A DNA stretch of 64,000 bases from Actinomycetales bacterium JB111 (GTDB lineage: Bacteria > Actinomycetota > Actinomycetes > Actinomycetales > Actinomycetaceae): positions 1 to 64,000 of the forward strand of contig FUHX01000043.1 in NCBI GenBank assembly GCA_900163555.1, in the 5' to 3' direction. The position numbers and the translations under genes were made by a program. The notes under the pieces are model-generated. The model ran no database searches. It was not told the DNA's origin and saw nothing but the letters and a program-made list of their open reading frames with translations. Shown here in pieces: positions 37,804-52,616 of the stretch. Positions within the stretch are counted from its first letter, which is position 1. The number at the start of each line of letters is the position of its first letter.

Positions 37804-37854
37804 CTAGACAACCCCGGACAAGCATTGACAGGTGCACCCCAGGTCACCTAGTTT
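37804..37854 (+). promoter_or_regulatory. Promoter of the glycerol-kinase-like gene with possible GntR half-site
   Basis: TTGACA (37825-37830), an 18-base spacer and TAGTTT (37849-37854), one of the clearest promoters in the window. CTAGACAA at 37804-37811, just upstream, resembles half of the GntR-associated motif (TATAGACAAGT) found elsewhere in the island. Confidence 0.6.
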
Positions 37855-37906: not shown

Positions 37907-39403
37907 ATGACTAGGTACATCCTGGGTATCGACGAGGGCACCACCAGCGCCCGTGCATTCGTCATCGACGAGGACACCAACGTCGTCGGCTTCGGACAGG
38001 CGGAACTGACTCAGCACTACCCCCAGCCCGGCTGGATCGAGCACAACCCCAAGGAGATCCTGGCGACCCAGCTCGAGGTCATCCGCGCCGCCCTGCGCGA
38101 CGCGAACATCCAGCCGAGCGACCTCTCCACCATCGGTCTCACCAACCAGCGCGAGACCGCGCTCGTGTGGGACAAGGAGACCGGCGAGCCGATCTACAAC
38201 GCGGTCGTCTGGGCGTCCCGCCACTCGACCCCCGTGGTGGAGAAGTGGGTGGCCGAGGGCCTCGGCGACCTCATCCAGGAGCGCACGGGCCTCATCCCGG
38301 ACGCCTACTACTCGGGCTCGAAGATCCGCTGGATCCTCGACAAGGTCCCGGGCGCGCAGGCGCGGGCCGAGGCCGGCGAGCTCCTCGCGGGCACCATCGA
38401 CACGTGGCTGATCTGGAACCTCACGGGCCGCACCCGGTTCGTCACCGAGGTCTCCAACGGCTCGCGCACGATGATGATGAACATCAACACGCTCGACTGG
38501 GACGACGAGCTCCTCGGCCACTACGGCATCCCCCGCCGCATGCTGCCCGAGATCATCGAGTCCAACGGCGACTTCGGCTCGGTCGAGGCCACCTTCGGCT
38601 CCGACGTGCGGATCACCGGCGTCCTCGGCGACCAGCAGGCCGGGCTCTTCGGCCAGGCCGCGTACCGCAAGGGCCTGTCGAAGATGACGTACGGCACCGC
38701 CGGTGTCCTCAACATCAACTCTGGATCCGAGGTGCAGCCGATCCCCGGCATCACCCCCTCCGTCGGCTGGAAGGTCAACGGTGAGGTCTCCTACGAGGTC
38801 GAGGGCGTCCTGTTCTCGCAGGGCAAGACGATGCAGTGGCTGCGCGACGATCTGCAGCTCATCCACGCCGCCCCGGACTCCGAGTGGTACGCCGGCCAGG
38901 TGCCGAGCACCGACGGCGTGTATCTCGTCCCGGCCTTCACCGGCCTCGCGGCCCCGCACTGGGACCCGCACGCCCGTGCCGCCATCATCGGCATGAGCAA
39001 CGCAACCTCGCGCCTGCACGTGATCCGCGCGGGCGTGGAGTCGATGGTCTACCAGACCCGCGACATGGTCGAGGCCGCCTACGACCACGGCAACGGTGTC
39101 TCGCTCGACGAGCTCCGCGTCGACGGTGGTGCCGTGAAGAACAACCTCCTGTGCCAGCTGCAGGCGGACATCCTCGGCATCCCGGTCGTGCGTCCGAAGA
39201 ACTCCGAGGCCACGATCTTCGGCGCCATGCTCCTCGCGGGCCTCGGCTCCGGGATCTACGCCAGCTTCGACGAGCTCGAGGCCAAGTGGGCCGTCGACCG
39301 CGTGTTCGAGCCCGACATGGACCGCGCGCAGGCCGACGAGATGTACGACGGCTGGCTGCGCGCCGTCGAGCTCACGAAGGGCTGGGCGAAGCCGAAGGCC
39401 TGA
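37907..39403 (+). CDS. Glycerol-kinase-like FGGY carbohydrate kinase
   Basis: 498 residues, closest by eye to GlpK. It has GIDEGTTSARAFVID, LTNQRETALVWDKETG (the Arg-Glu pair that holds glycerol), VVWASRH, DAYYSGSKIRWILD, VLGDQQAGLFGQ (catalytic Asp) and VDGGAVKNNLLCQLQADIL. Differences from GlpK in the pocket region (VVWASRHST for VVWQCRRT, MSNATSRLHVI) suggest a related polyol or ketose may be used instead of glycerol. AAGGA sits 7 bases before the ATG. It is divergent from the HAD and RuBisCO-like genes and ends at a textbook terminator. Confidence 0.92.
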   Translation: MTRYILGIDEGTTSARAFVIDEDTNVVGFGQAELTQHYPQPGWIEHNPKEILATQLEVIRAALRDANIQPSDLSTIGLTNQRETALVWDKETGEPIYNAVVWASRHSTPVVEKWVAEGLGDLIQERTGLIPDAYYSGSKIRWILDKVPGAQARAEAGELLAGTIDTWLIWNLTGRTRFVTEVSNGSRTMMMNINTLDWDDELLGHYGIPRRMLPEIIESNGDFGSVEATFGSDVRITGVLGDQQAGLFGQAAYRKGLSKMTYGTAGVLNINSGSEVQPIPGITPSVGWKVNGEVSYEVEGVLFSQGKTMQWLRDDLQLIHAAPDSEWYAGQVPSTDGVYLVPAFTGLAAPHWDPHARAAIIGMSNATSRLHVIRAGVESMVYQTRDMVEAAYDHGNGVSLDELRVDGGAVKNNLLCQLQADILGIPVVRPKNSEATIFGAMLLAGLGSGIYASFDELEAKWAVDRVFEPDMDRAQADEMYDGWLRAVELTKGWAKPKA

Positions 39404-39774: not shown

Positions 39775-41064
39775 TCAGGCGAGGATCTGCGTGGGGTTCT
39801 CGATGATCTCGCGCAGCCGCTTGAAGAACGTCGCGGCGAGCGCGCCGTCCACCGGGCGGTGGTCGACCGACAGCGTGAGCGACACGACCGAGGCCGCACG
39901 GACCTCGCCGTCGTCGTCGATCACGGCGACCTTGCGGGCCGCACCGACGGCGAGGATGCCGGCCTGCGGCGGGTTGAGGATGGCCGAGAACTCGTCCACC
40001 CCGAACATGCCCAGGTTCGTGACCGTGAACGACCCGCCCACGAGCTCGTCCTGCTTGAGCCCGCTGCCGCTCGCCCGCTCGGCGAAGTCCTTGATCTCCT
40101 TCGAGATCGAGGTCAGCGAGCGCTCGTCCGCGTTCCGGACGACCGGCGTGACCAGGCCCTTCTCCGAGGCGATCGCCACGGCGACGTCGGAGCGCTCGTA
40201 CCGGCGCACGAAGTCGTCCGACCACGTCACGTTCATCTCGGGCACGTCCTGCAGCGCGCGGGCCACGGCCCGCACGAAGAAGTCGTTGACCGAGACGCGC
40301 GTGGGTGCGCCCTCGTTGATCTCCTTGCGCAGCGCGAGCAGGCGGTCGACCTGCACGTCACCCTTGAGGTAGAAGTGCGGGGCCAGCTGCTTGCTCTCCT
40401 GCAGGCGCGAGGCCACGAACCGCCGGATCTTGCTGTGCGGGACGTCCTCGTAGCCCCCCGACGACGGCGCGGGCGCCGGTGAGGCGGGCACCGTCACCGG
40501 TGCGGCGGGAGCCGCCGCGGCCGGGGCCGCCGCCTGGGCGCCGCCGGCGGCGATGGCCGCCTCGACGTCCTTGCGGACGATGCGCCCGTTCGGGCCGCTG
40601 CCCGTGAGGGTGGCGATGTCGAGGTTGTTCTCGCGCGCGATCTTCCGTGCGATCGGGCTGGAGAAGATGCGTCCGCCGTGGGCGGCCGACGACGTAGCGG
40701 ACTCGCTCGCCGCCGCGGGGGCGGGCGCGGCCGGCGCTGCCGGCTCAGCCGGAGCGGCGGGTGCCGGTGCCGCCGGGGCGCCCCCGAGCTGGGCGACGAG
40801 GTCGTCGCCTGCGGCGGCGTCGTCGCCCTCCTCGAGGAGCACGGCGATCGGGTCGGACACGCCGACCGTCGCCCCGTCCTCGACGAGGAGCGCGTGGACG
40901 ACCGCGTCGGAGTCCACCTCGATGTCGACGACAGCCTTCTCGGTCTCGACCTCGGCGACGGCGTCGCCGGCGGAGACCGAGGCGCCCGCCTCGACGGACC
41001 ACTGGCTGAGGATCGCTGTGTCCGCGTCGGCGGAGACGCTGGGCATCCGGAGGAATTTAGCCAT
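39775..41064 (-). CDS. 2-oxoacid/acetoin dehydrogenase E2 acyltransferase
   Basis: 429 residues in E2 order. A lipoyl domain has the lipoylated lysine in EVETEKAVVDIE (Lys43). An Ala/Pro linker (about 93-130) leads to a subunit-binding domain SSPIARKIARENNLD ... GRIVRKDV (about 134-168), then a second Ala/Pro linker and the catalytic domain, which ends with SVDHRPVDGALAATFF (His402, Asp406). It moves an acyl group from E1-lipoate to CoA. One lipoyl domain is typical of acetoin or branched-chain complexes. AGAGGT precedes the ATG. It lies 32 bases after the E1 gene; no E3 gene is in the window, so a housekeeping lipoamide dehydrogenase probably serves. Confidence 0.93.
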   Translation of the reverse strand: MAKFLRMPSVSADADTAILSQWSVEAGASVSAGDAVAEVETEKAVVDIEVDSDAVVHALLVEDGATVGVSDPIAVLLEEGDDAAAGDDLVAQLGGAPAAPAPAAPAEPAAPAAPAPAAASESATSSAAHGGRIFSSPIARKIARENNLDIATLTGSGPNGRIVRKDVEAAIAAGGAQAAAPAAAAPAAPVTVPASPAPAPSSGGYEDVPHSKIRRFVASRLQESKQLAPHFYLKGDVQVDRLLALRKEINEGAPTRVSVNDFFVRAVARALQDVPEMNVTWSDDFVRRYERSDVAVAIASEKGLVTPVVRNADERSLTSISKEIKDFAERASGSGLKQDELVGGSFTVTNLGMFGVDEFSAILNPPQAGILAVGAARKVAVIDDDGEVRAASVVSLTLSVDHRPVDGALAATFFKRLREIIENPTQILA

Positions 41065-41096: not shown

Positions 41097-43268
41097 TCAG
41101 AGGGACCGCAGGGCGGCCACGATGTCATCGGTCTTCGCAAGCGCGGCAGCCTCGAGCACGCGGGAGATGCTCGGGGACGCCTCGCCGCCGTGGACGCGCT
41201 CGATCGGCGCGTCCAGCCAGTCGAAGAACCGACGCTGGATCTCGTCGGCGAGCCAGCCGCCGTACGAGGTGCCGAGCGAACCCTGCTCGACGATGAGGAC
41301 CTTGTTGGTCTTGCGGATCGACTCACCGATCGTGTCCCAGTCGATGCTGGCCATGTCGAGCCAGCGCAGGTCGATGACCTCGCCGTCGACGCCGGCCTCC
41401 TCGACCGCCTCGAGGGCGCGGTGGACCATCGACAGGTAGCTGATGACCGTGACGTCGGAGCCGGCGCGACGGATGGCCGCCTGGCCGACGGGCAGGCAGA
41501 AGTCGAAGTCCTCCTTCGGCGCCGTCATCGTCTCCTTGTACAGGTCGGAGTCGTGCTCGAGCACCGCGACCGGGTCCTTCAGGCGCATCGCGGCGTTGAG
41601 CAGGCCGACGTACTCCAGCGGGGAGGACGGGGCGATGATGCGCCAGCCGACGGACGTGGCGAGGATGCCCGCCGGGTCCATCGAGTGCTGCGAGCCGTAG
41701 CCGGTCTTCGTGCCGATCTTGATGCGCATGGCCATCGCCATGTCGTGGTCGCCACCGAACATGTGGCGGGCCTTGGCGATCTGGTTGAAGATCTGGTCGG
41801 CCGCGACCCAGATGAAGTCCGCGTACATGAGCTCGACGACCGGGTAGTAGCGGCCGTCCAGGGCAACGCCGCCGCCGAGACCGGTGAACGCGGCCTCCGA
41901 GATCGGGGTGCCGAGCGTGCGGTCCGGGAAGTCCACCGCGAGGCTCTTGGTCGCGCCGCGGGATCCGCCGTTGAGCTTGTGGACGTCCTCACCGAGAACC
42001 ATGATCGAGTCGTCCTCGGACATGCGGCGGTGCATCGTCTCCGCGACGACCTCGACGAACTTGCGCTCCTCGAGCTCGTCCGGCGCGAAGTCCGCGATCT
42101 CGCGGACCTTCGCGTCGCCGAGGTCCTCGGGGCCGCGGATGCCGACGTCGATGAAGCCCGGGTCCGGCCACAGCTCGGGACGGATGCGGTTGGTGCCCGG
42201 CTTGCCCTCGGGGTCCGGCTCGACGAGCTCGGCGGCCACCTCGGCCATGACCTTCTTCGAGGTCTTGCGCAGGCCGGCGATCTCCTCGTCCGTCAGCAGG
42301 CCGCGGCGCTTCAGCTGCGCGTCCATCTGCGCGATCGGGTCGCGGTCCTTCCAGGACTGCTCCTCGTCCTTCGTGCGGTAGCCGAAGGCGCTGCCCGGGA
42401 ACGGGCCGTTCTGGTGGAAGTGACGGTAGGTGTCGACCTCGATGACGGTCGGGCCACCACCGGAGCGCATGACCTCGAGGGCCTCCTGCATCGCCAGGTA
42501 GACGGCGACGGTGTCCATGCCGTCGACTTTCCAGGACGGGATGCCGAAGCCCGGACCACGACCGGACAGGCGGCTCTCGCCGGTGGCCTCGGTGTCCGTG
42601 GTGGACACGGCGTAGTGGTTGTTCTCGATGAAGAAGCAGACCGGGAGCTTCCAGGCGGCCGCGAGGTTCATCGTCTCGAGGACGGAACCGATGTTGACGG
42701 CGCCGTCGCCGAAGTAGGTCACCGACACGTTGTCCGTGCCGGCGTGCTTGGCGGACCAGCCGAAGCCGGACGCGAACGGGACGGCACCGCCGACGATCGC
42801 GTTGGTGCCCATGGCACCGGCTTCCTTCCACTGCAGGTGCATCGACCCGCCGCGGCCGCGGCAGTAGCCCTGCGCGAGGCCGGCGATCTCCGCGAGGCTG
42901 CGGCGCAGCACCGTGCGGATCTCGTCCGACACGCCGCCGAGGATGTCGAAGCCGCCCGGGGCCACGTAGCCGAAGGCCTTCGCGAGGAACTGGTGGTGGC
43001 CGCGGTGCGATCCGTTGACGAAGTCTCCGCCCACGAGCGGGAAGCCCGAACCGACGGCTCCACCCTCCTGGCCGATGCTGGAGTGCGCGGGACCGTTGAT
43101 GAGCTTCTGCCCGGCGAGGTCCAGCACCTCCTCCTCGAAGGCGCGGATCAGGTGAAGCTGCGTCGCCATCGCGACGAGCGTCTCCTTGTCGATCGCGTCC
43201 CAGTCCTCATCGGTCGTGGTCAGCTCAACCCAGGGGGCTGAAGCCTCGAGAGCCGTCTTCTTTGCCAT
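41097..43268 (-). CDS. Fused E1 alpha/beta subunit of a thiamine-dependent dehydrogenase
   Basis: 723 residues. Residues about 30-340 are E1-alpha with RGRGGSMHLQWKEAG and the thiamine-diphosphate motif GDGAVNIGSVLETMNLA (about 186-202). Residues about 385-723 are E1-beta with VLGEDVHKLNGGSRGATKSL, GTPISEAAFTGLGGGVAL, ADFIWVAADQIFNQIAKARH and VEQGSLGTSYGGWLADEI. Separate genes are usual; fusion is less common. The substrate could be a 2-oxoacid or, as in acetoin dehydrogenase, a hydroxyketone that is cleaved. Start ATG 43268 (MAKKTALE). It is divergent from the GntR gene, with a shared operator-like motif between. Confidence 0.93.
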   Translation of the reverse strand: MAKKTALEASAPWVELTTTDEDWDAIDKETLVAMATQLHLIRAFEEEVLDLAGQKLINGPAHSSIGQEGGAVGSGFPLVGGDFVNGSHRGHHQFLAKAFGYVAPGGFDILGGVSDEIRTVLRRSLAEIAGLAQGYCRGRGGSMHLQWKEAGAMGTNAIVGGAVPFASGFGWSAKHAGTDNVSVTYFGDGAVNIGSVLETMNLAAAWKLPVCFFIENNHYAVSTTDTEATGESRLSGRGPGFGIPSWKVDGMDTVAVYLAMQEALEVMRSGGGPTVIEVDTYRHFHQNGPFPGSAFGYRTKDEEQSWKDRDPIAQMDAQLKRRGLLTDEEIAGLRKTSKKVMAEVAAELVEPDPEGKPGTNRIRPELWPDPGFIDVGIRGPEDLGDAKVREIADFAPDELEERKFVEVVAETMHRRMSEDDSIMVLGEDVHKLNGGSRGATKSLAVDFPDRTLGTPISEAAFTGLGGGVALDGRYYPVVELMYADFIWVAADQIFNQIAKARHMFGGDHDMAMAMRIKIGTKTGYGSQHSMDPAGILATSVGWRIIAPSSPLEYVGLLNAAMRLKDPVAVLEHDSDLYKETMTAPKEDFDFCLPVGQAAIRRAGSDVTVISYLSMVHRALEAVEEAGVDGEVIDLRWLDMASIDWDTIGESIRKTNKVLIVEQGSLGTSYGGWLADEIQRRFFDWLDAPIERVHGGEASPSISRVLEAAALAKTDDIVAALRSL

Positions 43269-43406: not shown

Positions 43407-43438
43407 ACACTACCCGCACTATACATCTATAGACAAGT
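43407..43438 (-). promoter_or_regulatory. E1 promoter with GntR-type operator motif
   Basis: On the minus strand TTGTCT (43436-43431), 18 bases, TAGTGT (43412-43407). The motif ACTTGTCTATAGATGTATAG (43438-43419, then T) overlaps the -35 region and spacer. It matches 15 of 21 positions of the motif before the aldolase gene, and its first ten bases recur before the FGGY kinase gene. It lies between E1 and the divergent GntR gene, so auto-control is likely. Confidence 0.6.
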
Positions 43439-43541
43439 GAAGATCTGTCCGTCCGACGCTAGGATGTTCGGACACAACACCACGTCGGGGGCGACGCAGC
43501 TCCCGTCGCAGGCTACCGCGCAACCGACCGAGGACACATCG

Positions 43542-44276
43542 ATGACCGAGACGCTCTCTCGCACCGGCCCCACTCCCATGTACGTGCAGCTGACGAACAT
43601 CCTGCGCGACAAGATCGAGGCCGGCGAGTGGTCTGTCAACGAGAAGATCCCTTCCGAGAACGCGCTCAACCAGATGTACGGCATCTCCCGCATGACCGCC
43701 CGTCAGGTGCTGGCACAGCTCGTCAACGAGGGGCTTCTCTTCCGCGTGCAGGGCAAGGGCACGTTCGTGGCGCCCAGGAAGATCGCCACGCGCTCCCCCT
43801 CCTACAAGGGCATCCGCGAGCAGCTGGAGCAGATGGGCTACCAGACCGCGACCGAGCTCCTCAGCGAGGAGGTCATCGTGGCGGACCGCCATCTGTCCGC
43901 CCGTCTCGCGCTGCCCGAGGACGAGCCGGTGCACAAGATCCGCCGCCTGCGCACGGTGGACGGGGAGCCGATCAGCCTGCACGAGTCCTACATCCCGCAG
44001 CGCCTCGCGCCCGGCCTGTTCGAGCACGACGCCGCGAGCCAGCAGCTCTGCGTGATCCTCGAGCGGGAGTTCGACCTCGAGATGGGTCACATCATCGAGA
44101 CGCTCGAGTCCGCCTCGCCGACCAACGAGGACGCCAAGCTGCTCGGCGTGCACCGCAGCACTCCCCTGCTCGTCCTGCGCCAGGAGATCTCCAGCCCCAC
44201 GGGTCAGCGCTTCGAGTACTCGAAGATCACGTTCCGCGGCGACAAGGTCCGTCTCACCTTCGAGTACGACCAGTAG
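43542..44276 (+). CDS. GntR-family regulator, HutC subfamily
   Basis: 244 residues. The N-terminal winged helix (about 12-78, YVQLTNILRDKIEAGEWSV, SENALNQMYGISRMTARQVL, GLLFRVQGKGTFVA) is followed by a UTRA ligand domain (about 95-240, with VHKIRRLRTVDGEPISLHES and FRGDKVRLTFEYD). UTRA proteins bind phosphorylated sugars or small acids. GAGGAC precedes ATG 43542; an in-frame ATG at 43464 would add 26 residues. It sits in the middle of the island, divergent from E1/E2, and is the best candidate to control the whole set. Confidence 0.93.
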   Translation: MTETLSRTGPTPMYVQLTNILRDKIEAGEWSVNEKIPSENALNQMYGISRMTARQVLAQLVNEGLLFRVQGKGTFVAPRKIATRSPSYKGIREQLEQMGYQTATELLSEEVIVADRHLSARLALPEDEPVHKIRRLRTVDGEPISLHESYIPQRLAPGLFEHDAASQQLCVILEREFDLEMGHIIETLESASPTNEDAKLLGVHRSTPLLVLRQEISSPTGQRFEYSKITFRGDKVRLTFEYDQ

Positions 44277-44291
44277 CGCGGCCCCGCGCGC

Positions 44292-44852
44292 TCAGCGCGC
44301 GTGGGTGGGAACGTCGTCGGGTGTGGTCGTCCCCCGACGACGATCGGTCGCCTCGGGCGACCGGGTCGCGGATCCCAGGCGTGCGCGCCAGAGGAGGACG
44401 ACCGCGGCGCCCGCGAGGCACAGGCCGACGAAGGTCAGCAGCGCGAGCCCGATGCCGGGGTTCATCCCGTAGCCACGCACGGCGCCGGACGCCCAGAGCA
44501 TCGTCACGATGCCCGCGGCGGCGCCGAGGACGAGGAACGTGGCGGCGGCCGCAAGGTCGGTCTGGGTGCGCCGGTCCGGCCCCGTCTCCCCCGCGTGGTC
44601 CGGAGGGCCGCTGCCGCGTCCGCCGGAAAGAACGTGGTGGAAGGCGAGGCCCGTGAGCGCCGCGGCGATCTCGACCGGCACGAAGCACAGGATCGAGTAC
44701 GCGAGCAGCGTGGTGGCGACGGACTGCAGCTCGGGGTAGTCACCGACAAGCTCCTGCGCGATCCAGGGCAGGCCGACCGCCTGGACCAGCACGCTGAGCG
44801 CGAGCACCGCCCACGCCCCCGCCGCCACGGCGGACGTCGTCATCTGCCTCAT
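44292..44852 (-). CDS. Four-helix membrane protein, DUF2975-like
   Basis: 186 residues with four hydrophobic segments (about 8-28, 45-70, 95-120, 138-160) and a charged tail. The layout resembles DUF2975 membrane proteins of Gram-positives. The function is unknown and it is not obviously part of the sugar pathway. GGGTGAGAG precedes ATG 44852. It is convergent with the GntR gene (15 bases apart). Confidence 0.7.
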   Translation of the reverse strand: MRQMTTSAVAAGAWAVLALSVLVQAVGLPWIAQELVGDYPELQSVATTLLAYSILCFVPVEIAAALTGLAFHHVLSGGRGSGPPDHAGETGPDRRTQTDLAAAATFLVLGAAAGIVTMLWASGAVRGYGMNPGIGLALLTFVGLCLAGAAVVLLWRARLGSATRSPEATDRRRGTTTPDDVPTHAR

Positions 44853-44974
44853 CGCTCTCACCCTCGCCTTGTGGCTGCACCGGAAGCTCATCGTCCCAGG
44901 GGCTCGCGGAAACGTCCATCGGTCGGCGCCGGTTGAGCGGCCCTGCGCGGCGGGACGCACGGTCGACGCACAAC

Positions 44975-45011
44975 GCGCCGTGCCCCGCTCGTCATGAGCG
45001 GGGCACGGCGC
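44975..45011. terminator. Perfect 16-bp hairpin
   Basis: Arms 44975-44990 and 44996-45011 match exactly with loop GTCAT. It lies downstream of the CbbY-like gene on the minus strand and upstream of the DUF2975-like gene. Confidence 0.75.
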
Positions 45012-45034
45012 GGGTGGAGGAGAGAGTCGGCCGG

Positions 45035-45796
45035 TCAGGCCGCGAGGAGCTTCGTCAGCGACTCGCGGTCGATCACGCCGTTCGAGCGCACGTCGTCGCC
45101 GGCGCGAACCTCGGCCGGGTTGTCGGCCTCGCCCAGGTGCGACACCACGATGGCCGCGTCCGGGAACGGGTCGTTCTGCGTGAAGTGGCTGAGGGTCACG
45201 ACGTGCGTGATCCCCGCCGCCGCGGCGGCCTTCGCGCCCGACTCGGAGTCCTCGACCACGACCGCGTCGGCCTTGTCGATGCCGAGCTCGGCCACGGCCA
45301 GGTTGTAGATGTCGGGCGCGGGCTTCTTGGCCGGGACGACGTCGCCGGCCCAGACGCCGGAGACGCGGGCGTAGAGGTCCTCGCCGATCACGTTGCGCAA
45401 CACGGCGCGCACGGAACGCTCGGCGGACGTCGAGGCGACGGCGACCTTCCAGCCGGCGTCGAGGACCTCCGCGATGATGCGGCGGACGCCGGGGCGACCC
45501 GGCAGCTTGCCGGCCTCGACGAGCTCCACGTAGATCTCGCTCTTGCGCTTGTGGGTCTCCGCGACCTTCTCGTCCAGGTCCGGGGCCGAGGCGAGCTCGA
45601 GCTCCGGGTGCTGGCCGAGGTAGTGCCGCATGCGCTCCTTGCCGCCGCCGACCTTGAGCAGGTCGGAGTACTCCTCGGCGGTCCAGCGGAACGGGAAGCC
45701 GAGCTCCTCGAACGTCTGGTTGAAGGCCACGAGGTGGCCGTCGAGCTCGGTGTCCGCGAGGACGCCGTCGCAGTCGAAGATCAGTGCGTTGGTCAT
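45035..45796 (-). CDS. CbbY-like HAD phosphatase
   Basis: 253 residues. HAD motif I IFDCDGVLADTELDGH is followed by a helical cap with AFNQTFEELG and LLKVGGGKERMRHYL, motif II VAVASTSAERSV, VWAGDVVPAKKPAPDIYNLA and motif IV VVVEDSESGAKAA. The VGGGKERM cap motif and DTELDGH are close to CbbY proteins, which dephosphorylate the RuBisCO by-product xylulose-1,5-bisphosphate; I recognise plant and bacterial CbbY by these segments. With a RuBisCO-like protein 9 kb away, a ketopentose- or ketotetrose-bisphosphate is a reasonable substrate, but this is inference. The start codon shares one base with the aldolase stop (TGATG), so the two are coupled. Confidence 0.88.
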   Translation of the reverse strand: MTNALIFDCDGVLADTELDGHLVAFNQTFEELGFPFRWTAEEYSDLLKVGGGKERMRHYLGQHPELELASAPDLDEKVAETHKRKSEIYVELVEAGKLPGRPGVRRIIAEVLDAGWKVAVASTSAERSVRAVLRNVIGEDLYARVSGVWAGDVVPAKKPAPDIYNLAVAELGIDKADAVVVEDSESGAKAAAAAGITHVVTLSHFTQNDPFPDAAIVVSHLGEADNPAEVRAGDDVRSNGVIDRESLTKLLAA

Positions 45797-46656
45797 CAGG
45801 CGCCCTTTCCAGCGGAACGGAAGATCTCAAAGTTCTCGCCGATGACGGTGGCGACGTTGGCCTCGATCGCGTTGAACAGCTTGACCGGGTCCCACTTGTC
45901 GTTGGCCTCGCACTCCTTGAGGTGCGCGAGGGATCCCTGCATGTAGGCGTACTTCAGGGCGGTGGAGATGTTGATCTTCGCGATGCCCGCGTCGATGAAG
46001 CTGTGGAAGTCCTCCGCCGCGAGGCCGGTGCCGCCGTGCAGGACGACCGGCAGGTCCGTCTTGGCGGCGAACTCGGCGGCGCGGTCCTGGCGCAGGACCG
46101 GGGTGGACTTGTACTGGCCGTGGGCGGTGCCGAGCTGCGGGGCGATCATGTCGGTGCCGGTGTCCACGGCGACCTCGATGAGCTTGTCCACCGAGTACGA
46201 GTGCACGGCCACGTCGGAGCCGACGCCGTCCTCGACGCCGATGATGTTCTCGATCTCGGACTCGACGGCCACGCCGGCGGCGTGCGCCTCGGCGACGACC
46301 TCACGGGTCTCGGCCCAGGCGGTGTCGAGGTCGCGGTCGGAGGCGTCGAAGAGGACGGAGTCCCAGCCGTGCTTGATGACCTCGGTGATCACGGCGCGGT
46401 CCGGGCAGTGGTCGAGGTGCAGGGAGACCGGGGCGCTCGACTGAGCTGCCGAGTAGCGGTAGGCGGCCGCGAGGACCTCGGCGCCGAGCATCTTCACGGT
46501 CTTCACCGACGTCTGGAGGATGACCGGCGAGTTCGCCTTCTCGGCGGCGGACACGACCGCGCGGATCGAGTGCGCGTCGACGATGTTGACGGCGGGGACC
46601 GCGTACCCGTTGCCGCGAGCGGCCTGTACGAGATCAAGAGTCTTGGCGATGGTCAT
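45796..46656 (-). CDS. Class II ketose-bisphosphate aldolase
   Basis: 286 residues, GatY/FbaA type. Zinc ligands fall in SLHLDHCPD (His), VHSYSVD region, APQLGTAHGQY (His) and VLHGGTGL (His). SVLFDASDRDLDTAWAETREVV is the usual helix, and the phosphate loop has KINISTALKYAYMQG. The short length fits tagatose/fructose-bisphosphate or sedoheptulose-bisphosphate aldolases. It condenses or splits dihydroxyacetone phosphate with an aldehyde phosphate. GAGGTACCTCC precedes ATG 46656. The gene has its own promoter region with the GntR-type motif 80-100 bases upstream and is coupled to the CbbY-like gene. Confidence 0.92.
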   Translation of the reverse strand: MTIAKTLDLVQAARGNGYAVPAVNIVDAHSIRAVVSAAEKANSPVILQTSVKTVKMLGAEVLAAAYRYSAAQSSAPVSLHLDHCPDRAVITEVIKHGWDSVLFDASDRDLDTAWAETREVVAEAHAAGVAVESEIENIIGVEDGVGSDVAVHSYSVDKLIEVAVDTGTDMIAPQLGTAHGQYKSTPVLRQDRAAEFAAKTDLPVVLHGGTGLAAEDFHSFIDAGIAKINISTALKYAYMQGSLAHLKECEANDKWDPVKLFNAIEANVATVIGENFEIFRSAGKGA

Positions 46657-46734
46657 TGGAGGTACCTCTTCCCGGGTGGGCACGGAACTGGTGCGGCATC
46701 GAACCGCCCTCGATGGGGCGTCCGCCCACCGTCG

Positions 46735-46755
46735 ACTATACATGTTAGTACAACT
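46735..46755 (-). promoter_or_regulatory. GntR-type operator motif before the aldolase gene
   Basis: On the minus strand AGTTGTACTAACATGTATAG then T. Compared with the site before E1, both read TTGT, six variable bases, ATGTATAGT. TATAGT at its end is a good -10 box, so binding would block the aldolase promoter. Confidence 0.6.
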
Positions 46756-46844
46756 TGGGTCGAGTGCCCGACGCCGATCGTCCGCACGGCCGTCGACGAA
46801 CCACGAGTCGTCGCTGACTCGCGATCCTCGACGACCCGCGGTGA

Positions 46845-47618
46845 CTACCGCTCGGCGGGCGCGTGCGCGCGGACCTCGTCGACGCTGGCCAGGAAGCGGT
46901 CGGCGTCCAGGCCGCCGCGGCCGAGGAAGATCCCCTCGGGGGTCTGGGCGGCGGACGTCGCCGCGCCCGCAATGTCGGCGTAGGTCCCCGGGACAGCCGA
47001 ACCGCCGTAGACGATCCGGAACTCGGACACCGTGTTCTGAAGGACGCCGCGCAGCGCCTCGACGGTCCGCGCGATGTGCTCCGGCGGCGCGGGCTGCGGC
47101 GCGCCGATCGCCCACGTGGGCTCGTAAGCGGCGATGACCTCGGCTCCCTCGGGCAGCCCGCCGAACGCACGCTCGACCTGCTCGGTGAGGACCGGGACGG
47201 GGTCGTCGTCGGCGGTCGGCTCGCCGCACACGAGGATCGGCACGATCCCGGCGTCGACGGCGGCCTCGATCTTTGCCCGCACGAGTTCGTCCGTCTCCCC
47301 CTGGTACTTCCGACGCTCGGGGTGGCCGACCATCGTGTAGCGCGCGCCGAGGGCGGCCAGCAGCTCGGCGGGGACCTCGCCCGTGTACGCGCCGAGCGGG
47401 TGCGCGGAGAGGTCCTGGACGCCGATCTCGACCCCGAGCGGCCCGAGCGCGGTGACGAATCGGTCCACCAGCGGGAACGGCACGCAGATGTACGCCCCCT
47501 CCCCCTGTCCGGGGCGCTCGGCGAGGCCGGCGGCCACCGTGTCGATCCAGGCGGTCGCCTGGTCGAGGGAGAAGTAGGCCTTCGAGCTGAAGCCGGTCAG
47601 GGCCTGGGGGATCGACAC
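46845..47618 (-). CDS. Divergent triosephosphate isomerase family protein
   Basis: 257 residues of TIM barrel. The usual NWKM start is GFSSKAYFS (lysine kept). The catalytic His is in MVGHPERRKY (Pro replaces the Ser of GHSERR), the catalytic Glu is in AAYEPTWAIG, and the phosphate loop is IVYGGSAVPG. Such changes occur in EryH/LerI-type isomerases that act on erythrulose phosphates, so a tetrulose-phosphate isomerase is more likely than housekeeping TPI. Start GTG 47618 with GAAGGAC 9 bases upstream; a hydrophilic upstream frame is not conserved. It is downstream of the dihydroxyacetone kinase gene. Confidence 0.88.
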   Translation of the reverse strand: MSIPQALTGFSSKAYFSLDQATAWIDTVAAGLAERPGQGEGAYICVPFPLVDRFVTALGPLGVEIGVQDLSAHPLGAYTGEVPAELLAALGARYTMVGHPERRKYQGETDELVRAKIEAAVDAGIVPILVCGEPTADDDPVPVLTEQVERAFGGLPEGAEVIAAYEPTWAIGAPQPAPPEHIARTVEALRGVLQNTVSEFRIVYGGSAVPGTYADIAGAATSAAQTPEGIFLGRGGLDADRFLASVDEVRAHAPAER

Positions 47619-47815
47619 GCGATCACGTCCTTCGCTGGTGCGGGTGGAGGGGAAGTTGGGGAACGGAGGAGGGTGCGGCCTGACGCGCCGGCGGGGTGCC
47701 GCGTCCCTCGCCCGGCCGGTGCGGTGCACCGGTAGGGAGGAGGTCGCGACACCCCGCCGTCACGTGCCCGGACCCGGCTCACGCGCGTTGCGCGCGGGCG
47801 GCCCCGTGGGCCAGT

Positions 47816-47850
47816 CGGTGGCCGGCCGGATCTCGTCCCGCCGGCCACCG
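47816..47850 (-). terminator. Hairpin after the dihydroxyacetone kinase gene
   Basis: 11-bp arms CGGTGGCCGGC / GCCGGCCACCG (47816-47826, 47840-47850), 12 bases beyond the kinase stop. The 243-base gap to the isomerase gene holds no ORF I can support. Confidence 0.55.
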
Positions 47851-47861
47851 CGGTCGGCCTG

Positions 47862-49550
47862 TCAGCCGATGAGGTTCGCGATGACCTCGATGATGCTTCC
47901 GGCGGAGACCGCACCCGGGTCCGGGTGACCGACGGACTTCTCCGCCAGCGGGCGGGAGCGGCCGATCTTCGGGCTGAGCGGGGCGGTGTCCTGCGCGAGC
48001 TTCGGCGCGGAGGACGCGGCGTCGGCCCAGGAGCCGTTCGCCTCGAGCTCGTTCACGACCGGCACGATGACGTCGACCATGGTCTTGTCACCGAGCTCGG
48101 CGCCGCCGACCTTGACGAGGGCGTCGCGACCGGCGACGAACGCGGCGACCGCGTCGTCGTTGGTCGGGGTGCCCGTGTCGGACAGCGAGCCGCCGACGGC
48201 GAGGATGATCGCGCCCCAGAGCGCGCCGGAGGTGCCGCCCGCGTCGTCGGACCAGGCCTGACCCGCGCGGGTGAGCGTGGTGCCGAGGCCGGCGCCGGCC
48301 TCGACGGCGGCCTTCGCCTCGCGGAGGGCCGAGGTGGCGCCGCGGACCATGCCGATGCCGTGGTCGCCGTCGCCGGCGAACGCGTCGAGGTTGCCGAGCT
48401 CCTCCTCCTGCTCCTTCAGGCGCGCGAGGATCTTTTCGATGCCGTCGACGGCCTGGGCCGCGGCGGCGCGCGAGGCGTCGTCGGACTCGGGGATCTCACC
48501 CTTGGTGTCCTCGGCGATGACCGCGTCCGCCTCGGAGATCGGGGCGACGTCGCCGATCGCACCGCGCTTGAAGGCCGGGGTGTCGACCGGGTCGAGCCAG
48601 AGCTTCTCCAGCTCGTCGTCGAGCCACACGAGGGACAGCGAGAGGCCGCCCATGTCCAGGGAAGTCACGAGCTCGTCGGCGACCGAGTCGACGATGGTCA
48701 CGCCGGCCTCCTCGAGCGCCGCGTGGACGGACTTGAAGACGACGAAGAGCTCCTCGTACTTCGTGGTGCCGAGGCCGTTGAGCAGGGCGACGACGCGGCC
48801 GTCCGCGTTCGCCGGGCGCTCCTCGAGGAGCTTGCCCACGAGCAGGCGGGCGACCTCGTCGGCGGTGCCGAGGTCCATCTCGTCGATGCCGGGCTCGCCG
48901 TGCACGCCGAGGCCGAGGGACAGGCGCCCCTCCGGAACGGTGAACAGCGGCTGGGCGGCGCCAGGGAGGGTGCAGCCCGAGTATGCGACGCCGAGCGTGA
49001 AGGTCGCGTCGTTCGCCTTGGCGTTGACGCGGAGGACCTCGTCGAAGTCGTAGCCGGCCTCGGCCGCGGCGCCGGTGATCTTGAAGACCGGCACGAAGCC
49101 CGAGATGCCGCGGCGCTTCTCCGGGGTCTCCGGCGGGGCGGAGGCGATGTCGTCGGTGAGGACGAGGACCGAGGCCTTCTGGCCCTCGGCCTTCAGCTGC
49201 TCGACGGCCGCACCGAAGTGGAGGACGTCACCGGCGTAGTTGCCGAAGCAGATCACGGTGCCGCCGCCCTGGTCGGCGGCCTTCGCGACGGAGACCGCCT
49301 CGGTCGCGGACGGGGACGAGAAGATGTTGCCACAGACGGCGCCGTCGGCCATGCCCGGCCCGACCCAGCCCATGAAGGCCGGGTAGTGGCCGGTGCCGCC
49401 ACCGACGAGGACGGATACCTTTCCCTGCCGCTTCGCGGTGTTGCGGGCAACGCCGCCCGGGACGCGGCGGACGTGCCGGCCGTTCGCGGCGACGAAGCCG
49501 TCGACGAGCTCCTTGGGGAAGTCGTCAGGGTTGTTCCAGAGCTTGGTCAT
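47862..49550 (-). CDS. One-piece ATP-dependent dihydroxyacetone/erythrulose kinase (DhaK-DhaL)
   Basis: 562 residues. The DhaK domain (1-330) has VGGGTGHYPAFMGWVG and the covalent substrate His217 in GLGVHGEPGID. The DhaL domain (about 365-562) has the Mg-binding AFAGDGDHGIGMVRG and AGGTSGALWGAIIL. Fusion of both domains means ATP, not PEP, is the donor. Enzymes of this layout include L-erythrulose kinase (LerK) of the mycobacterial erythritol/threitol pathways. GAGGATTA precedes the ATG. It lies 108 bases after the AraM-like gene, in the same direction. Confidence 0.93.
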   Translation of the reverse strand: MTKLWNNPDDFPKELVDGFVAANGRHVRRVPGGVARNTAKRQGKVSVLVGGGTGHYPAFMGWVGPGMADGAVCGNIFSSPSATEAVSVAKAADQGGGTVICFGNYAGDVLHFGAAVEQLKAEGQKASVLVLTDDIASAPPETPEKRRGISGFVPVFKITGAAAEAGYDFDEVLRVNAKANDATFTLGVAYSGCTLPGAAQPLFTVPEGRLSLGLGVHGEPGIDEMDLGTADEVARLLVGKLLEERPANADGRVVALLNGLGTTKYEELFVVFKSVHAALEEAGVTIVDSVADELVTSLDMGGLSLSLVWLDDELEKLWLDPVDTPAFKRGAIGDVAPISEADAVIAEDTKGEIPESDDASRAAAAQAVDGIEKILARLKEQEEELGNLDAFAGDGDHGIGMVRGATSALREAKAAVEAGAGLGTTLTRAGQAWSDDAGGTSGALWGAIILAVGGSLSDTGTPTNDDAVAAFVAGRDALVKVGGAELGDKTMVDVIVPVVNELEANGSWADAASSAPKLAQDTAPLSPKIGRSRPLAEKSVGHPDPGAVSAGSIIEVIANLIG

Positions 49551-49658
49551 CGTTAATCCTCAGTGATCGTGATGAATGGGGGGCGCCCGCCGGGGGCGAG
49601 CTGACATCGTGCCGGGCGCCTGTCGACCGGCACGGGCGATTGTGTAACAGCAGGCGGC

Positions 49659-50999
49659 CTACGCACCACCTCCGGCCGCAGCGGCGCGTGCGAACACGGC
49701 GTCGATCAGCTCGTCGTCCCACGCCCCGTTCATGACGAGCAGATCGGCAAGAGTGACGCGATTCCGCATGAACGGCAGGGCGGAGAGCACCCACTTGGCG
49801 CGCTCCTCGCTGATCGCGGGGGTCAGGTCGGAAAAGGTCAGCGGGGCGCCCCACTGGGAAAGCGTGCGCGAGACGTACTGCGGCGCGGCAAGAAGTCCAC
49901 GCAGTCGGTCGATGAGCTCGGCGTCGATCGTGGGTCGGGTCGCCGCGGTCTCCTGCCAGACTGCGATCTTCTGGGCGACGTTCGCCTGGCACGTCTCGGA
50001 CAGCCGCCCGCTCGGGTCGACGACCCGCCACGTGGTGTCCACGCGGTCGAGCGTGTCCTCCGGGTAGGTGGTGCCGGCGTCGATGCGCACGAGGTCCCGC
50101 TCGAGGGCGATCTCCCACAGCGCGGTGCTGAGCACGGTCGCCACGCCGACCTGTCGGCCGTGGAGGTCGTGCTCCGTGCCCTCGGCGATGGCCGCCATGT
50201 CGAGGATGTGGCTGGTGAGGTGCTCGCACCCGGACAGCGGGGCGGTGCTGCCCACCACGCCGATCGACAGACCGCCGTAGGTGAGCGCGTCCACGAGCGC
50301 GGGCATCGCGCCGTCGGCCTCCCGGCCGTCGTGCAGCCGCCCGACGGCGTCCATCAGGTCGGTCAGGACGGCCGGGTCCGCCTCGGCTCCCGTCAGGTGA
50401 GAGGCAAGGACCCAGTCCGCGATCGAGGAGCCGATCGCGACCGCGTCCCCGACGCCGGAGCCCACGAGCGTGTCCGGCGACCGCTCGAGCGCATCCGACT
50501 CGATGAGGATGGCGCTCGGCCACCTGGTCGGCCGCGTCGACTTCGCCCCTGCGTTGATGAGGACGCTCATCGCGTCCGCATACCCATTGACCGAGGCCGC
50601 CGACTGGACGGCGACAAGCGGGACACCCTCGGCCGTGGCGGCCTTCCCCAGGTCCGTGATCGTCCCGGAACCCACCGACACGACTCCCCCGGCGGCCGCG
50701 AGGCGGTCGGCGGAGTCCTGCACGGTGCGCTCGTCGAGGACCAGCCCGTGGTCGTCGATCAGCGGGGTGACGATCTCGGTGGCGAAGCCGCTCGCCTCGA
50801 TCGAGGCGACGACCTTCGCGAGGAGGTCGCCGTCGTCGACGGGCTTGGCGACGCCGTCGGACAGGATCGCGATCGGTGAGCGCGCTCCCAGCCTGGTGAG
50901 GGTCTCCCCCGCCCGGGCCGCGGCCCCGGCGGAGTAGTCGATCTGGTCGAGGTGTCCGTTGGAGGCCGCGAGGGCGGCCTCGGTCAGATGAGTGGTCAT
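49659..50999 (-). CDS. AraM/glycerol-1-phosphate dehydrogenase-like protein
   Basis: 446 residues, iron-containing-alcohol-dehydrogenase fold of the EgsA/AraM type. It has an NAD-binding VSVGSGTITDLGKAAT (about 107-122) and metal ligands in VAIGSSIADWVLASH (Asp), SGCEHLTSHILDM (His) and LHGRQVGVATVL (His). AraM enzymes interconvert sn-glycerol-1-phosphate and dihydroxyacetone phosphate. Next to an EryA-like kinase it may oxidise a tetritol phosphate to a tetrulose phosphate, the step done by the flavoprotein EryB elsewhere; this is inference. The start immediately follows the FGGY kinase stop (TAAATG). Confidence 0.88.
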   Translation of the reverse strand: MTTHLTEAALAASNGHLDQIDYSAGAAARAGETLTRLGARSPIAILSDGVAKPVDDGDLLAKVVASIEASGFATEIVTPLIDDHGLVLDERTVQDSADRLAAAGGVVSVGSGTITDLGKAATAEGVPLVAVQSAASVNGYADAMSVLINAGAKSTRPTRWPSAILIESDALERSPDTLVGSGVGDAVAIGSSIADWVLASHLTGAEADPAVLTDLMDAVGRLHDGREADGAMPALVDALTYGGLSIGVVGSTAPLSGCEHLTSHILDMAAIAEGTEHDLHGRQVGVATVLSTALWEIALERDLVRIDAGTTYPEDTLDRVDTTWRVVDPSGRLSETCQANVAQKIAVWQETAATRPTIDAELIDRLRGLLAAPQYVSRTLSQWGAPLTFSDLTPAISEERAKWVLSALPFMRNRVTLADLLVMNGAWDDELIDAVFARAAAAGGGA

Positions 51000-52541
51000 T
51001 TAGACAGTGAGCTCCGATGCTTCCGCGAGGTCGTTCCACAGCGGCTGCATCGCCTCACGGGTGCGGCGGTACAGCTCGAAGTAGCGGGTGTAGACGGCGG
51101 TCTTGTCCAGGTTGGGCTCGTACTCGCGCACGATGGTGACCGTCCGCTCGACGCCGTCCTTGTGGGAGGCGAAGACTCCGGCGCCCACGCCCGCGACGAT
51201 CGCTGCGCCCTTGGCGCCGAACTCGGAGCCGGCCGGGACGATGATCTTGCGGCCGAGGACGTCCGCGAAGATCTGGCACCAGACCTCCGAGTTCGCGCCA
51301 CCGCCGGCCATGCGGACCGTCCTGACCTCCGTGGGGATGGAGTCGAGGCAGTCGCGGATGCCGTAGGCGACGCCCTCGTAGACGGCGCGCAGCATGTCGT
51401 GGGTCGTGTGGTGGCCGCGGATGCCGGTGAAGGAGCCGCGGGCCGACGGCTTGACGAAGGGCGCGCGCTCGCCGCCGGGGGCGAGGTAGCCGTGGTAGAT
51501 CAGGCCGCGGGCGCCGACCGGCACGGACGCGAGGACCTCGTCGATGTACTCCCACGAGTTGACGTCCTTGGCGGCGGCCTCGTCACGGATCGAGTTGCCG
51601 GGGCCGTCGAGGAACCAGTCCACGTTCGGGGTGCAGAAGTTCATGCCCATGGCGCGGATCCAGGTGTCCGGGCTGTGGGGGATGACCCAGCCGGAGTCCT
51701 GCGGGTCCAGCCCGCCGTCGAGGGAGTTCGTACAGACCGTGACGATGCCGGCCGTGCCGATGACCGCCATGCAGTCGCCGGGCTCGGCCACGCCGACGCC
51801 GAGGGACGACGCCGTGATGTCCATCTGGCCCTTGTAGACCGGGGTGCCGGCCTTGAGACCGGTCTGGCCCGCGGCGATCTCGGTGACCTCGCCCGCGAGG
51901 TCCGTGGACTCCTTGATGGGCGGGAGGACGTGCTTGATGTCCTTGATGCCGAAGGTCTCGAGCACCGAGTCGTCCCACTGGCGCGTGCGGACGTCGATGC
52001 CGGCGAGGGAGGCGTCGGAGCCGTCGGTGGAGATGTCGTCGGTGAGGTTGTAGGAGATCCAGTCCTTGGCCCACAGCTGCGTGGCGCCCGCGAGGTTCTC
52101 GGGCTGGTTGTCCTTGCGCCAGCGCAGGACGGCCGAGGCGGTGCCGGCGTACGGGCCGAGGCCCGACGTCTTGAACTGCTTGGAGATCGTGCCGTCCTCG
52201 TACCACTGGTCGATGATCTTGCCGGTGCGACCGTCGGTCCAGAGGATCGCGTTGCCCTTGGGCTTGCCGTTCTCGTCGATGAGCCAGCTGCCGTCGCCCT
52301 GGCCGGTGACGGAGACGGCAACGATCTCGGAGGGGCGGACGGACGATCCGACGATGGCCTCGCGGATGGCGGTGGCCGCGGCGGACCACACGCGGTTCAT
52401 GTCTTCCTCGGCCTCGTTCGGCGAGGGGTTGATGATCGGGACGGTGCCGGCGCCGCGGCTCATCTCCGTACCGGTCTCGGAGAATACGGCGGCCTTGATG
52501 ACCGATGTCCCGGCGTCGATGCCGAGCAGATACTTCGTCAT
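51000..52541 (-). CDS. FGGY carbohydrate kinase, EryA-like
   Basis: 513 residues. The FGGY kinase begins LGIDAGTSVIKAAVFSETG, has NEAEEDMNRVWSAA and VSVTGQGDGSWLID in the N-lobe, YKGQMDITASSLGVG (catalytic Asp) and, in the C-lobe, YEGVAYGIRDCLD and VRMAGGGANSEVWCQIFADV with GSEFGAKGAAIVA. The N-terminal segment and NEAEEDMN region recall erythritol kinase (EryA), though xylulokinase-like activity cannot be excluded. GAGGAG precedes ATG 52541. It is the first gene of a minus-strand run with the AraM-like and dihydroxyacetone kinase genes. Confidence 0.88.
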   Translation of the reverse strand: MTKYLLGIDAGTSVIKAAVFSETGTEMSRGAGTVPIINPSPNEAEEDMNRVWSAAATAIREAIVGSSVRPSEIVAVSVTGQGDGSWLIDENGKPKGNAILWTDGRTGKIIDQWYEDGTISKQFKTSGLGPYAGTASAVLRWRKDNQPENLAGATQLWAKDWISYNLTDDISTDGSDASLAGIDVRTRQWDDSVLETFGIKDIKHVLPPIKESTDLAGEVTEIAAGQTGLKAGTPVYKGQMDITASSLGVGVAEPGDCMAVIGTAGIVTVCTNSLDGGLDPQDSGWVIPHSPDTWIRAMGMNFCTPNVDWFLDGPGNSIRDEAAAKDVNSWEYIDEVLASVPVGARGLIYHGYLAPGGERAPFVKPSARGSFTGIRGHHTTHDMLRAVYEGVAYGIRDCLDSIPTEVRTVRMAGGGANSEVWCQIFADVLGRKIIVPAGSEFGAKGAAIVAGVGAGVFASHKDGVERTVTIVREYEPNLDKTAVYTRYFELYRRTREAMQPLWNDLAEASELTV

Positions 52542-52606
52542 GGAACTCCTCGTTGAGTACACGAACGACTCTCGCCCGCACGTCGAGCCTAGCCACCGCT
52601 GTCCGT

Positions 52607-52616
52607 ACTTGTCTAT
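52607..52616. promoter_or_regulatory. Half-copy of the GntR-type motif before the FGGY kinase gene
   Basis: ACTTGTCTAT is identical to the first ten bases of the E1/GntR site. On the minus strand TAGACA here could be the -35 element, with TAGGCT about 18 bases downstream as the -10. Confidence 0.45.

What the first reader, a model, noticed from the sequence alone, without database searches (positions are those of the whole stretch)
43418..52616. Shared 21-bp motif defining a GntR regulon
The E1/GntR interval and the aldolase promoter share TTGT-N6-ATGTATAGT (15 of 21 positions identical). ACTTGTCTAT recurs before the FGGY kinase at 52607, and CTAGACAA lies upstream of the glycerol-kinase-like promoter at 37804. 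In this GC-rich genome such AT-rich matches are unlikely by chance. They tie at least three transcription units to the GntR protein.
Basis: seen in the sequence. Interest (0 to 1): 0.55.

Follow-up and report, generated by a model that had tools for sequence, protein, structure and literature searches.

The report
Tandem 10-bp GntR operator and regulon
A short DNA sign, built from a 10-letter unit repeated two to four times in a row, sits in front of the gene groups of one sugar or polyol breakdown cluster and very probably is where one regulator protein sits to switch them together; the kind of switch is known, the repeated layout for this sort of regulator is less usual.

Summary
The 21-mer is two copies of a 10-bp unit (TATACAWGnn) spaced one helical turn. 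A degenerate pattern derived from these four sites matches nowhere else in the 3.26-Mb assembly (4 matches, reversed control 0). In the intervals before GntR of 15 cluster loci, the window included, 13 have a strong array (likelihood ratio 223.8 against at most 73.6 in 8 shuffled sets). A matrix from those intervals alone finds it again before aldolase, kinase, RuBisCO-like and phosphofructokinase genes of relatives. The regulator is a HutC-type GntR, and neighbouring units can form the HutC core GT-N4-AC. Most likely it is a local repressor of a carbohydrate-phosphate pathway of unknown substrate, binding as dimers on overlapping half-sites. Against: the aldolase, glpK and FGGY sites are weak alone, two cluster loci lack a site, and the proposed base-reading residue does not explain a second group of loci. 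Binding, repression and inducer are inferred. Interest is moderate.

The parts
43420..43439 (+). Operator in the GntR/E1 divergent interval: two 10-bp units TATACATCTA TAGACAAGTG
   Evidence: 34.7 bits with the window left out of the matrix; only genome hit up to E 10, E 0.015
46737..46756 (+). Operator before the aldolase-HAD genes: units TATACATGTT AGTACAACTT; overlaps a promoter-like TCGACC-17-TATAGT
   Evidence: (15.6 bits); weak (E 3.6)
37805..37834 (+). Operator between glpK and the divergent Cof and RuBisCO-like genes: units TAGACAACCC CGGACAAGCA TTGACAGGTG
   Evidence: 13.2 and 9.8 bits; identity at lag 10 is 0.65; weak (E 0.89)
52596..52615 (-). Operator before the FGGY genes, read as units TAGACAAGTA CGGACAGCGG; the matrix hit reads the same place on the plus strand, one unit over (CGTACTTGTC TATGCAGGGC)
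   Evidence: (9.1 bits, under the 12-bit line); weak (E 1.3)
43542..44276 (+). GntR regulator, HutC type with UTRA domain (244 aa)
41097..43268 (-). 2-oxoacid dehydrogenase E1, alpha and beta parts fused (723 aa)
39775..41064 (-). E2-like protein beside E1; name from its place and sequence read by eye
   Evidence: kept beside E1 in relatives; no family search was run on it
45796..46656 (-). class II ketose-bisphosphate aldolase
45035..45796 (-). HAD phosphatase, beta-phosphoglucomutase-like
51000..52541 (-). FGGY kinase, first gene of the run FGGY, G1PDH-like, DAK, TIM-like
49659..50999 (-). iron-ADH / glycerol-1-phosphate-dehydrogenase-like protein
47862..49550 (-). dihydroxyacetone-kinase-family protein
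46845..47621 (-). triosephosphate-isomerase-like protein (start uncertain)
37907..39403 (+). glycerol-kinase-like protein GlpK
36853..37671 (-). Cof-type HAD phosphatase, divergent from glpK
35504..36754 (-). RuBisCO-like protein, below the curated cut-off of all 6 families it matched (OiaX 204.5 of 700); start uncertain

Best explanation
The shared motif is the operator of the HutC-type GntR protein encoded at 43542-44276. The operator is a row of 10-bp half-sites (TATACAWGnn; two to four units in the relatives, two or three here), one per helical turn. Because the half-site core ACAWGT is nearly self-complementary, two neighbouring units can form a HutC operator (GT-N4-AC), so a dimer could sit on any adjacent pair, and three or four units offer overlapping dimer sites on one DNA face. 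Here the sites would control GntR itself, E1-E2, aldolase-HAD, the FGGY run and the glpK/Cof-RuBisCO-like interval. The protein most likely represses by covering the promoter and lets go when a phosphorylated intermediate binds its UTRA domain. Shown: the sites, the 10-bp period, conservation, near-confinement to this cluster. Inferred: binding by this GntR, repression, inducer, dimers on overlapping pairs.
For: Motif before GntR in 15 cluster loci, window included: LLR 223.8 (40 starts) against 60.9-73.6 in 8 letter-shuffled sets (12 starts each); 13 of 15 strong. Leave-one-out matrix from GntR/E1 intervals only: all 7 hits above 9 bits in the window lie in the four promoter regions, 1.4 expected. 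At 12 bits over 16 loci: E1 14 of 15, GntR 14 of 17 (same intervals as E1, not independent), aldolase 8 of 13, GlpK 8 of 15, FGGY 4 of 7, RuBisCO-like 4 of 5; elsewhere 5 hits in 313,983 bases, 4 of them before a phosphofructokinase-type gene. Own genome: one hit of the window-free model, at GntR/E1; four hits of the derived pattern, all here. Seven genomes of cluster owners, 29 Mb: 22 hits (20 places) at E up to 1, 21 of them inside the fetched 20-kb loci or within 4 kb of their edges; many are training sites. Identity at lag 10 is 0.55 for 13 sites (2000 shuffles, largest 0.36) and 0.54 for 11 sites of a second group of loci with GntR, HAD and aldolase but no E1-E2, which points to GntR as the common factor; that group's own motif has LLR 227.2 against 63.8-66.0 in 3 shuffles, site found in 15 of 18 loci. 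NagR Arg38 aligns with Asn40 and Arg48 with Arg50; NagR reads G-5 and G-4 with these (PMC4333415, passages), and the base next to the conserved AC is A in unit 1 of all 22 and in unit 2 of 20 of 22 sites, which I had picked by the motif.
Against: The aldolase, glpK and FGGY sites of this window score low in the window-free model (E 0.89-3.6 for 64 kb) and rest on position, on promoters of relatives and on a post-hoc pattern. The FGGY site is under the 12-bit line (9.1). Two cluster loci, L030 and L097, have no good site in spite of a like recognition region; there E1 and E2 run in the direction of GntR, upstream of it. The residue argument fails in the second group: those proteins also have Asn at this position, yet several of their units read ACCTG or ACCGG, and L018 and L034 have His with A. 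The shared TATAGT may in part be a -10 element. In one search inverted overlays of the matrix score as high as the direct 10-bp shift (39.5 against 34.8), so direct and inverted readings cannot be told apart. No binding or expression data.
Confidence: 0.82

Rival explanations
1. The match is mainly a shared promoter element: TATAGT/TATACA as -10 and TTGT as chance or a -35-like part, without a specific regulator.
For: A TCGACC-17-TATAGT promoter-like match lies on the aldolase site; TATAGT recurs at the GntR/E1 site.
Against: No promoter-like match in the other three intervals. A -10 element would be expected to recur widely, but the two-unit pattern occurs only four times. Conservation covers about 24-28 bp with a 10-bp period.
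Confidence: 0.08
2. The sites are real operators but of another regulator, for example the LacI-like gene beside the phosphofructokinase in Microbacterium, or a global regulator.
For: A LacI-like ORF lies beside the phosphofructokinase-side site in L023-L025 (read by eye).
Against: A strong site lies in the GntR/E1 interval in 13 of 15 loci; a second group of GntR loci without E1-E2 keeps the 10-bp period. Of 119 genomes (own included) only the own one and G050 have a hit (strict filters; G050 was in the training set); these are the two in which I found this GntR beside E1. A global regulator would give many unrelated targets.
Confidence: 0.08
3. Only the GntR/E1 site, perhaps with the aldolase site, is real; the glpK and FGGY matches are chance.
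For: Low scores in this genome; the 10-mer alone is not rare.
Against: Arrays before GlpK or FGGY in several relatives with a matrix that never saw such promoters; the pattern is confined to the four promoters (post hoc).
Confidence: 0.17

Closest known systems
HutC-subfamily operators (NagR/YvoA dre sites; DasR)
   Same: GntR protein with UTRA domain; GT-N4-AC core (PMC4494728, passages); natural NagR sites are imperfect palindromes (PMC4333415, passages).
   Different: Half-site mostly CTTGT/CATGT instead of TGGT; two to four half-sites in a row at 10 bp instead of one pair.
E. coli NanR on its (GGTATA)3 operator
   Same: GntR-family repressor, three repeats, several promoters of one catabolic pathway (PMC8012715, passages).
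   Different: NanR is placed in the FadR subfamily (PMC4494728, passages), binds as three dimers, and its cooperativity needs a 32-residue N-terminal extension; the protein here is HutC type with about 12 residues before the HTH domain.
FarR and NagQ, HutC members with direct-repeat sites
   Same: HutC subfamily and direct repeats (FarR TGTATTAWTT, NagQ TGGTATT, as listed in PMC4494728, section 11).
   Different: Other repeat sequence; in that survey they were set aside as not alignable, whereas neighbouring units here can form the HutC core.

Membership tests
GntR family, HutC subfamily | N-terminal GntR winged helix plus C-terminal UTRA domain | tested here: met
   PF00392 68.8 bits (cut-off 27) and PF07702 118.6 bits (cut-off 23.8)
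GntR family, HutC subfamily | Operator with GT-N4-AC core | tested here: inconclusive
   Unit junction is GTATATAC or GTCTATAC before GntR in L023, L024, L025 and L027, one base off in several others. In the window GT-N4-AC is present at the aldolase (GT-TAGT-AC) and at FGGY read on the minus strand (GT-ACGG-AC), one base off at GntR/E1 (CT-ATAG-AC), poor at glpK (by eye)
HutC histidine repressor (TIGR02018), PhnF, TreR and other equivalogs | Score above curated cut-off | tested here: not met
   129 of 220 for TIGR02018, 107.1 of 156.8 for PhnF; none of the 20 listed NCBIfam families reached its cut-off
NagR/DasR | Arg at NagR position 38 reading G at -5, site GTGGTCTAGACCAC | tested here: not met
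   Asn40 at that position; base mostly A/T in the sites
Tandem-repeat operators like that of NanR (layout only) | Three or more units with fixed period | tested here: inconclusive
   Relatives show two to four units at 10 bp, read by eye; this window shows two units at three promoters and three at glpK
GntR repressor | DNA binding and release by an effector | not testable with these tools
   needs protein work

The most novel reading that the evidence does not exclude
A group of HutC-type regulators, found with aldolase-HAD clusters in actinobacteria, uses rows of overlapping half-sites at exactly one helical turn, so that dimers load side by side and cooperatively on a lattice of near-palindromic units: a graded switch unlike one dimer per palindrome, and made without the N-terminal extension that NanR needs.
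Probability: 0.3. Interest if true: 0.55.

Novelty: new variant of a known kind. Interest (0 to 1): 0.4.

Why it matters
It gives a testable operator and regulon for an unassigned pathway that includes a RuBisCO-like protein, and links the promoters of about a dozen genes (if the runs of genes are operons), so the regulator could be used to find the inducer and with it the substrate. The row of half-sites is a simple case in which to ask how HutC dimers share overlapping sites.

Tried and rejected
A strict regular expression for the unit (TANACAWG) found 46 units in 25 loci and only 2 pairs at 10 bp, too few to show the period, so aligned sites were used. Motif search in a mixed group of 20 other GntR loci gave a weak result not used (LLR 100.3 against 69.4-73.3). 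The group of 26 mostly Firmicutes loci (119.1 against 71.5-75.4) has some sites close to the HutC palindrome CTTGTATATACAAG; not analysed further. Paper searches for the pathway (listings only) gave nothing that names this cluster; the RuBisCO-like protein is below the OiaX cut-off, so no substrate is proposed.

Weak points: the pattern was made from the four sites. (G050) and 56 include training sites of the model. The model was calibrated in shortened form, so its E-values are rough, and the genome search uses a first look that can lose weak matches. L023-L025 are one genus and L018/L034 have nearly the same interval, so 13 of 15 are not 13 independent lineages. L025 was left out as a near-duplicate. 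In one search the second group has 11 of the 18 loci: L035, L036 and L040 had no site, L046, L048 and L077 are near-duplicates and L052 has its site on the other strand; I left these out. Sites compared at lag 10 had been picked by the motif, and lag 8 is also raised in the 13 sites (0.47). The genome scan kept the best 80 of 273 relatives. No tree of the regulators was built.

Full report
What was checked. The 21-mers agree at 15 of 21 positions. The 10-mer ACTTGTCTAT alone is weak evidence.

Anatomy. The four sites can be written TATACATCTA-TAGACAAGTG (GntR/E1), TATACATGTT-AGTACAACTT (aldolase), TAGACAACCC-CGGACAAGCA-TTGACAGGTG (glpK) and TAGACAAGTA-CGGACAGCGG (FGGY, minus strand). Each is a repeat of a 10-bp unit: identity at lag 10 is 0.50, 0.44, 0.65 and 0.39, the highest of lags 8 to 12 in each (for FGGY lag 12 is nearly equal, 0.38). 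The FGGY site can also be read on the plus strand one unit over, which is how the matrix hit it. The two-unit pattern YTGTN6WTGTMTA occurs four times in the 3.26-Mb assembly, at these four promoters, with no hit of the reversed control. The pattern was made from the four sites.

Genes. GntR is HutC type with a UTRA domain. Around it lie a fused E1 and an E2-like protein, a class II aldolase with a HAD phosphatase, an FGGY kinase followed by a G1PDH-like, a dihydroxyacetone-kinase-like and a triosephosphate-isomerase-like protein, a glycerol-kinase-like protein, a Cof-type phosphatase and a RuBisCO-like protein (E2 was not searched). Two genomes of the same family, G052 and G023, have contigs of the same lengths as contigs of Actinomyces urinae and Gleimia europaea, so the host most likely belongs to the Actinomycetaceae; this is an inference.

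Relatives. A scan of genome contigs with an alignment of five GntR proteins kept the best 80 of 273 relatives. The arrangement E2-E1-GntR-HAD-aldolase with E1 and GntR divergent is kept in L022-L029, L031-L034 and L018; in L030 and L097 E1 and E2 lie upstream of GntR in its direction. A motif search without a given motif, in the regions before GntR of 15 of these loci (window included, near-duplicate L025 left out), gave ACcGTACAAgTCTATACATGTATA with a log-likelihood ratio of 223.8; eight letter-shuffled sets, run with fewer starts (12 against 40), gave 60.9 to 73.6. Thirteen loci have strong sites (28.8-37.2 bits); L030 and L097 have 18.0 and 15.3.

Other promoters. A matrix made only from the GntR/E1 sites, with the tested locus (in one search also its close relatives) left out, was run over every locus. 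In the window the 7 hits above 9 bits all lie in the four promoter regions, 1.4 expected. At 12 bits over 16 loci: E1 14 of 15 (miss: L097), GntR 14 of 17 (misses: L030, L097 and a second GntR in L018), aldolase 8 of 13, GlpK 8 of 15, FGGY 4 of 7 (the window's own, 9.1 bits, is a miss), RuBisCO-like 4 of 5, TIM-like 2 of 5, G1PDH-like 2 of 14, Cof 1 of 7, DAK-like 1 of 7, E2 0 of 5. Divergent genes share a site, so E1 and GntR, and some GlpK, G1PDH-like, TIM-like and RuBisCO-like entries, are not independent; some GlpK entries are second copies inside a run of genes. Outside those promoters there are 5 hits in 313,983 bases; four lie before a phosphofructokinase-type gene (L023, L024, L025, L027; family shown for L027, the others by eye), the fifth in L034.

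Specificity in whole genomes. A sequence-only model of 22 sites without the window's own has one hit in the window's genome up to E 10, at GntR/E1, E 0.015 (the search scores only candidates of a first look). The other three sites are below its reach (E 0.89 to 3.6 for 64 kb). Of 119 genomes, own included, only this one and G050 have a hit at E up to 0.05, both in the GntR/E1 interval (strict filters); G050 was a training genome. In seven whole genomes of cluster owners, 29 Mb together, there are 22 hits at E up to 1 (two of them second readings of a place on the other strand); 21 lie inside the fetched 20-kb loci or within 4 kb of their edges, many being training sites. Two lie beyond the loci that I held: one before a gene that looks by eye like the zinc alcohol dehydrogenases of L028 and L034, and one in G124 whose target I did not settle. 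The one hit elsewhere (G125, E 0.6) lies just downstream of an FGGY-type kinase gene (by eye).

Period and symmetry. Thirteen GntR/E1 sites have an identity of 0.55 at lag 10 (2000 letter shuffles: mean 0.26, largest 0.36); lag 8 is also raised, 0.47. Eleven sites of a second group of loci, with GntR, aldolase, HAD and split DAK-like genes but no E1-E2, have 0.54 (largest shuffle 0.34). In that group the motif search gave LLR 227.2 against 63.8-66.0 in three shuffles, with a site in 15 of 18 loci. By eye, L034 and L018 show four units and L023, L024, L027 and L029 three. The unit core ACAWGT is almost its own reverse complement, so inverted symmetry is present as well (0.60 and 0.62 at two centres), and inverted overlays of the matrix score as high as the direct shift of 10 (39.5 against 34.8). 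Two neighbouring units of the sequence ACAAGT-CTAT-ACAAGT contain GTCTATAC, the HutC core with GT and AC four bases apart (PMC4494728, passages and section 11 read). The row is best seen as a 10-bp lattice of HutC half-sites rather than as purely direct repeats.

Protein side. The best matches among solved structures are NagR/YvoA and DasR. NagR reads G-5 with Arg38 and G-4 with Arg48 (PMC4333415, passages read). In the alignment these are Asn40 and Arg50 of the window's GntR. Loss of Arg38 with Arg48 kept would predict loss of G-5 with G-4 kept, and in the 22 sites the base next to the AC is A in unit 1 of all and in unit 2 of 20. Asn at HTH position 28, which by the Pfam numbering would be Asn40, weakly prefers A/T in the survey of HutC proteins, without statistical significance (PMC4494728, section 11). 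Against this, the second group of loci has Asn there too and yet several units ACCTG or ACCGG, and L018 and L034 have His with A. The residue is therefore at most a hint.

How it most likely works. The protein would be a local repressor that also controls its own gene. At the aldolase the site overlaps a promoter-like TCGACC-17-TATAGT, which would block RNA polymerase; at glpK the third unit contains TTGACA, a possible -35 (by eye; the scan found no promoter there). An intermediate bound by the UTRA domain would release it. Repression and inducer are inferred from the family. The pathway's substrate is open.

Known or new. Direct-repeat sites are known for a few GntR proteins: FarR and NagQ in the HutC group and NanR in the FadR group (PMC4494728, passages); NanR puts three dimers on three repeats, with cooperativity from a 32-residue N-terminal extension (PMC8012715, passages). 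The window's protein has about 12 residues before the HTH domain. The regulon is a new member of an ordinary kind; the 10-bp lattice of HutC half-sites kept over two groups of loci is a variant that I did not see described in the listings or in the passages read, which cover open-licence papers only.

Noticed in passing
window 35504-36754 (-): RuBisCO-like protein in the cluster scores below the cut-off of all 6 families it matched, OiaX included (204.5 of 700); relatives of it recur in the clusters, with an operator array in 4 of 5 tested promoters.
   Followed up: partly
L027:5177-6298; L023, L024, L025 near 3345, 5053, 4984: A phosphofructokinase-type gene beside the cluster carries the array in these relatives; I did not look for one in the window.
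   Followed up: partly
L020 about 9120 and 11466; L019 about 3308: GntR relatives in Gleimia-type loci have repeats such as GGTATAGTC-TGGTATAGTC, and L019 has a DasR-like ACTGGTCTAGACCAC, so the half-site differs within the family (by eye).
   Followed up: partly
window 52743-53786 (-) and 33541-34515 (+): Two NMT1/SsuA-type substrate-binding proteins flank the cluster, one on each side; no matrix hit above 9 bits lies before them.
   Followed up: no
window 44292-44852 (-): An ORF of 186 aa between GntR and HAD, hydrophobic at its start by eye, without a Pfam match and without a hit in the relatives' loci.
   Followed up: no
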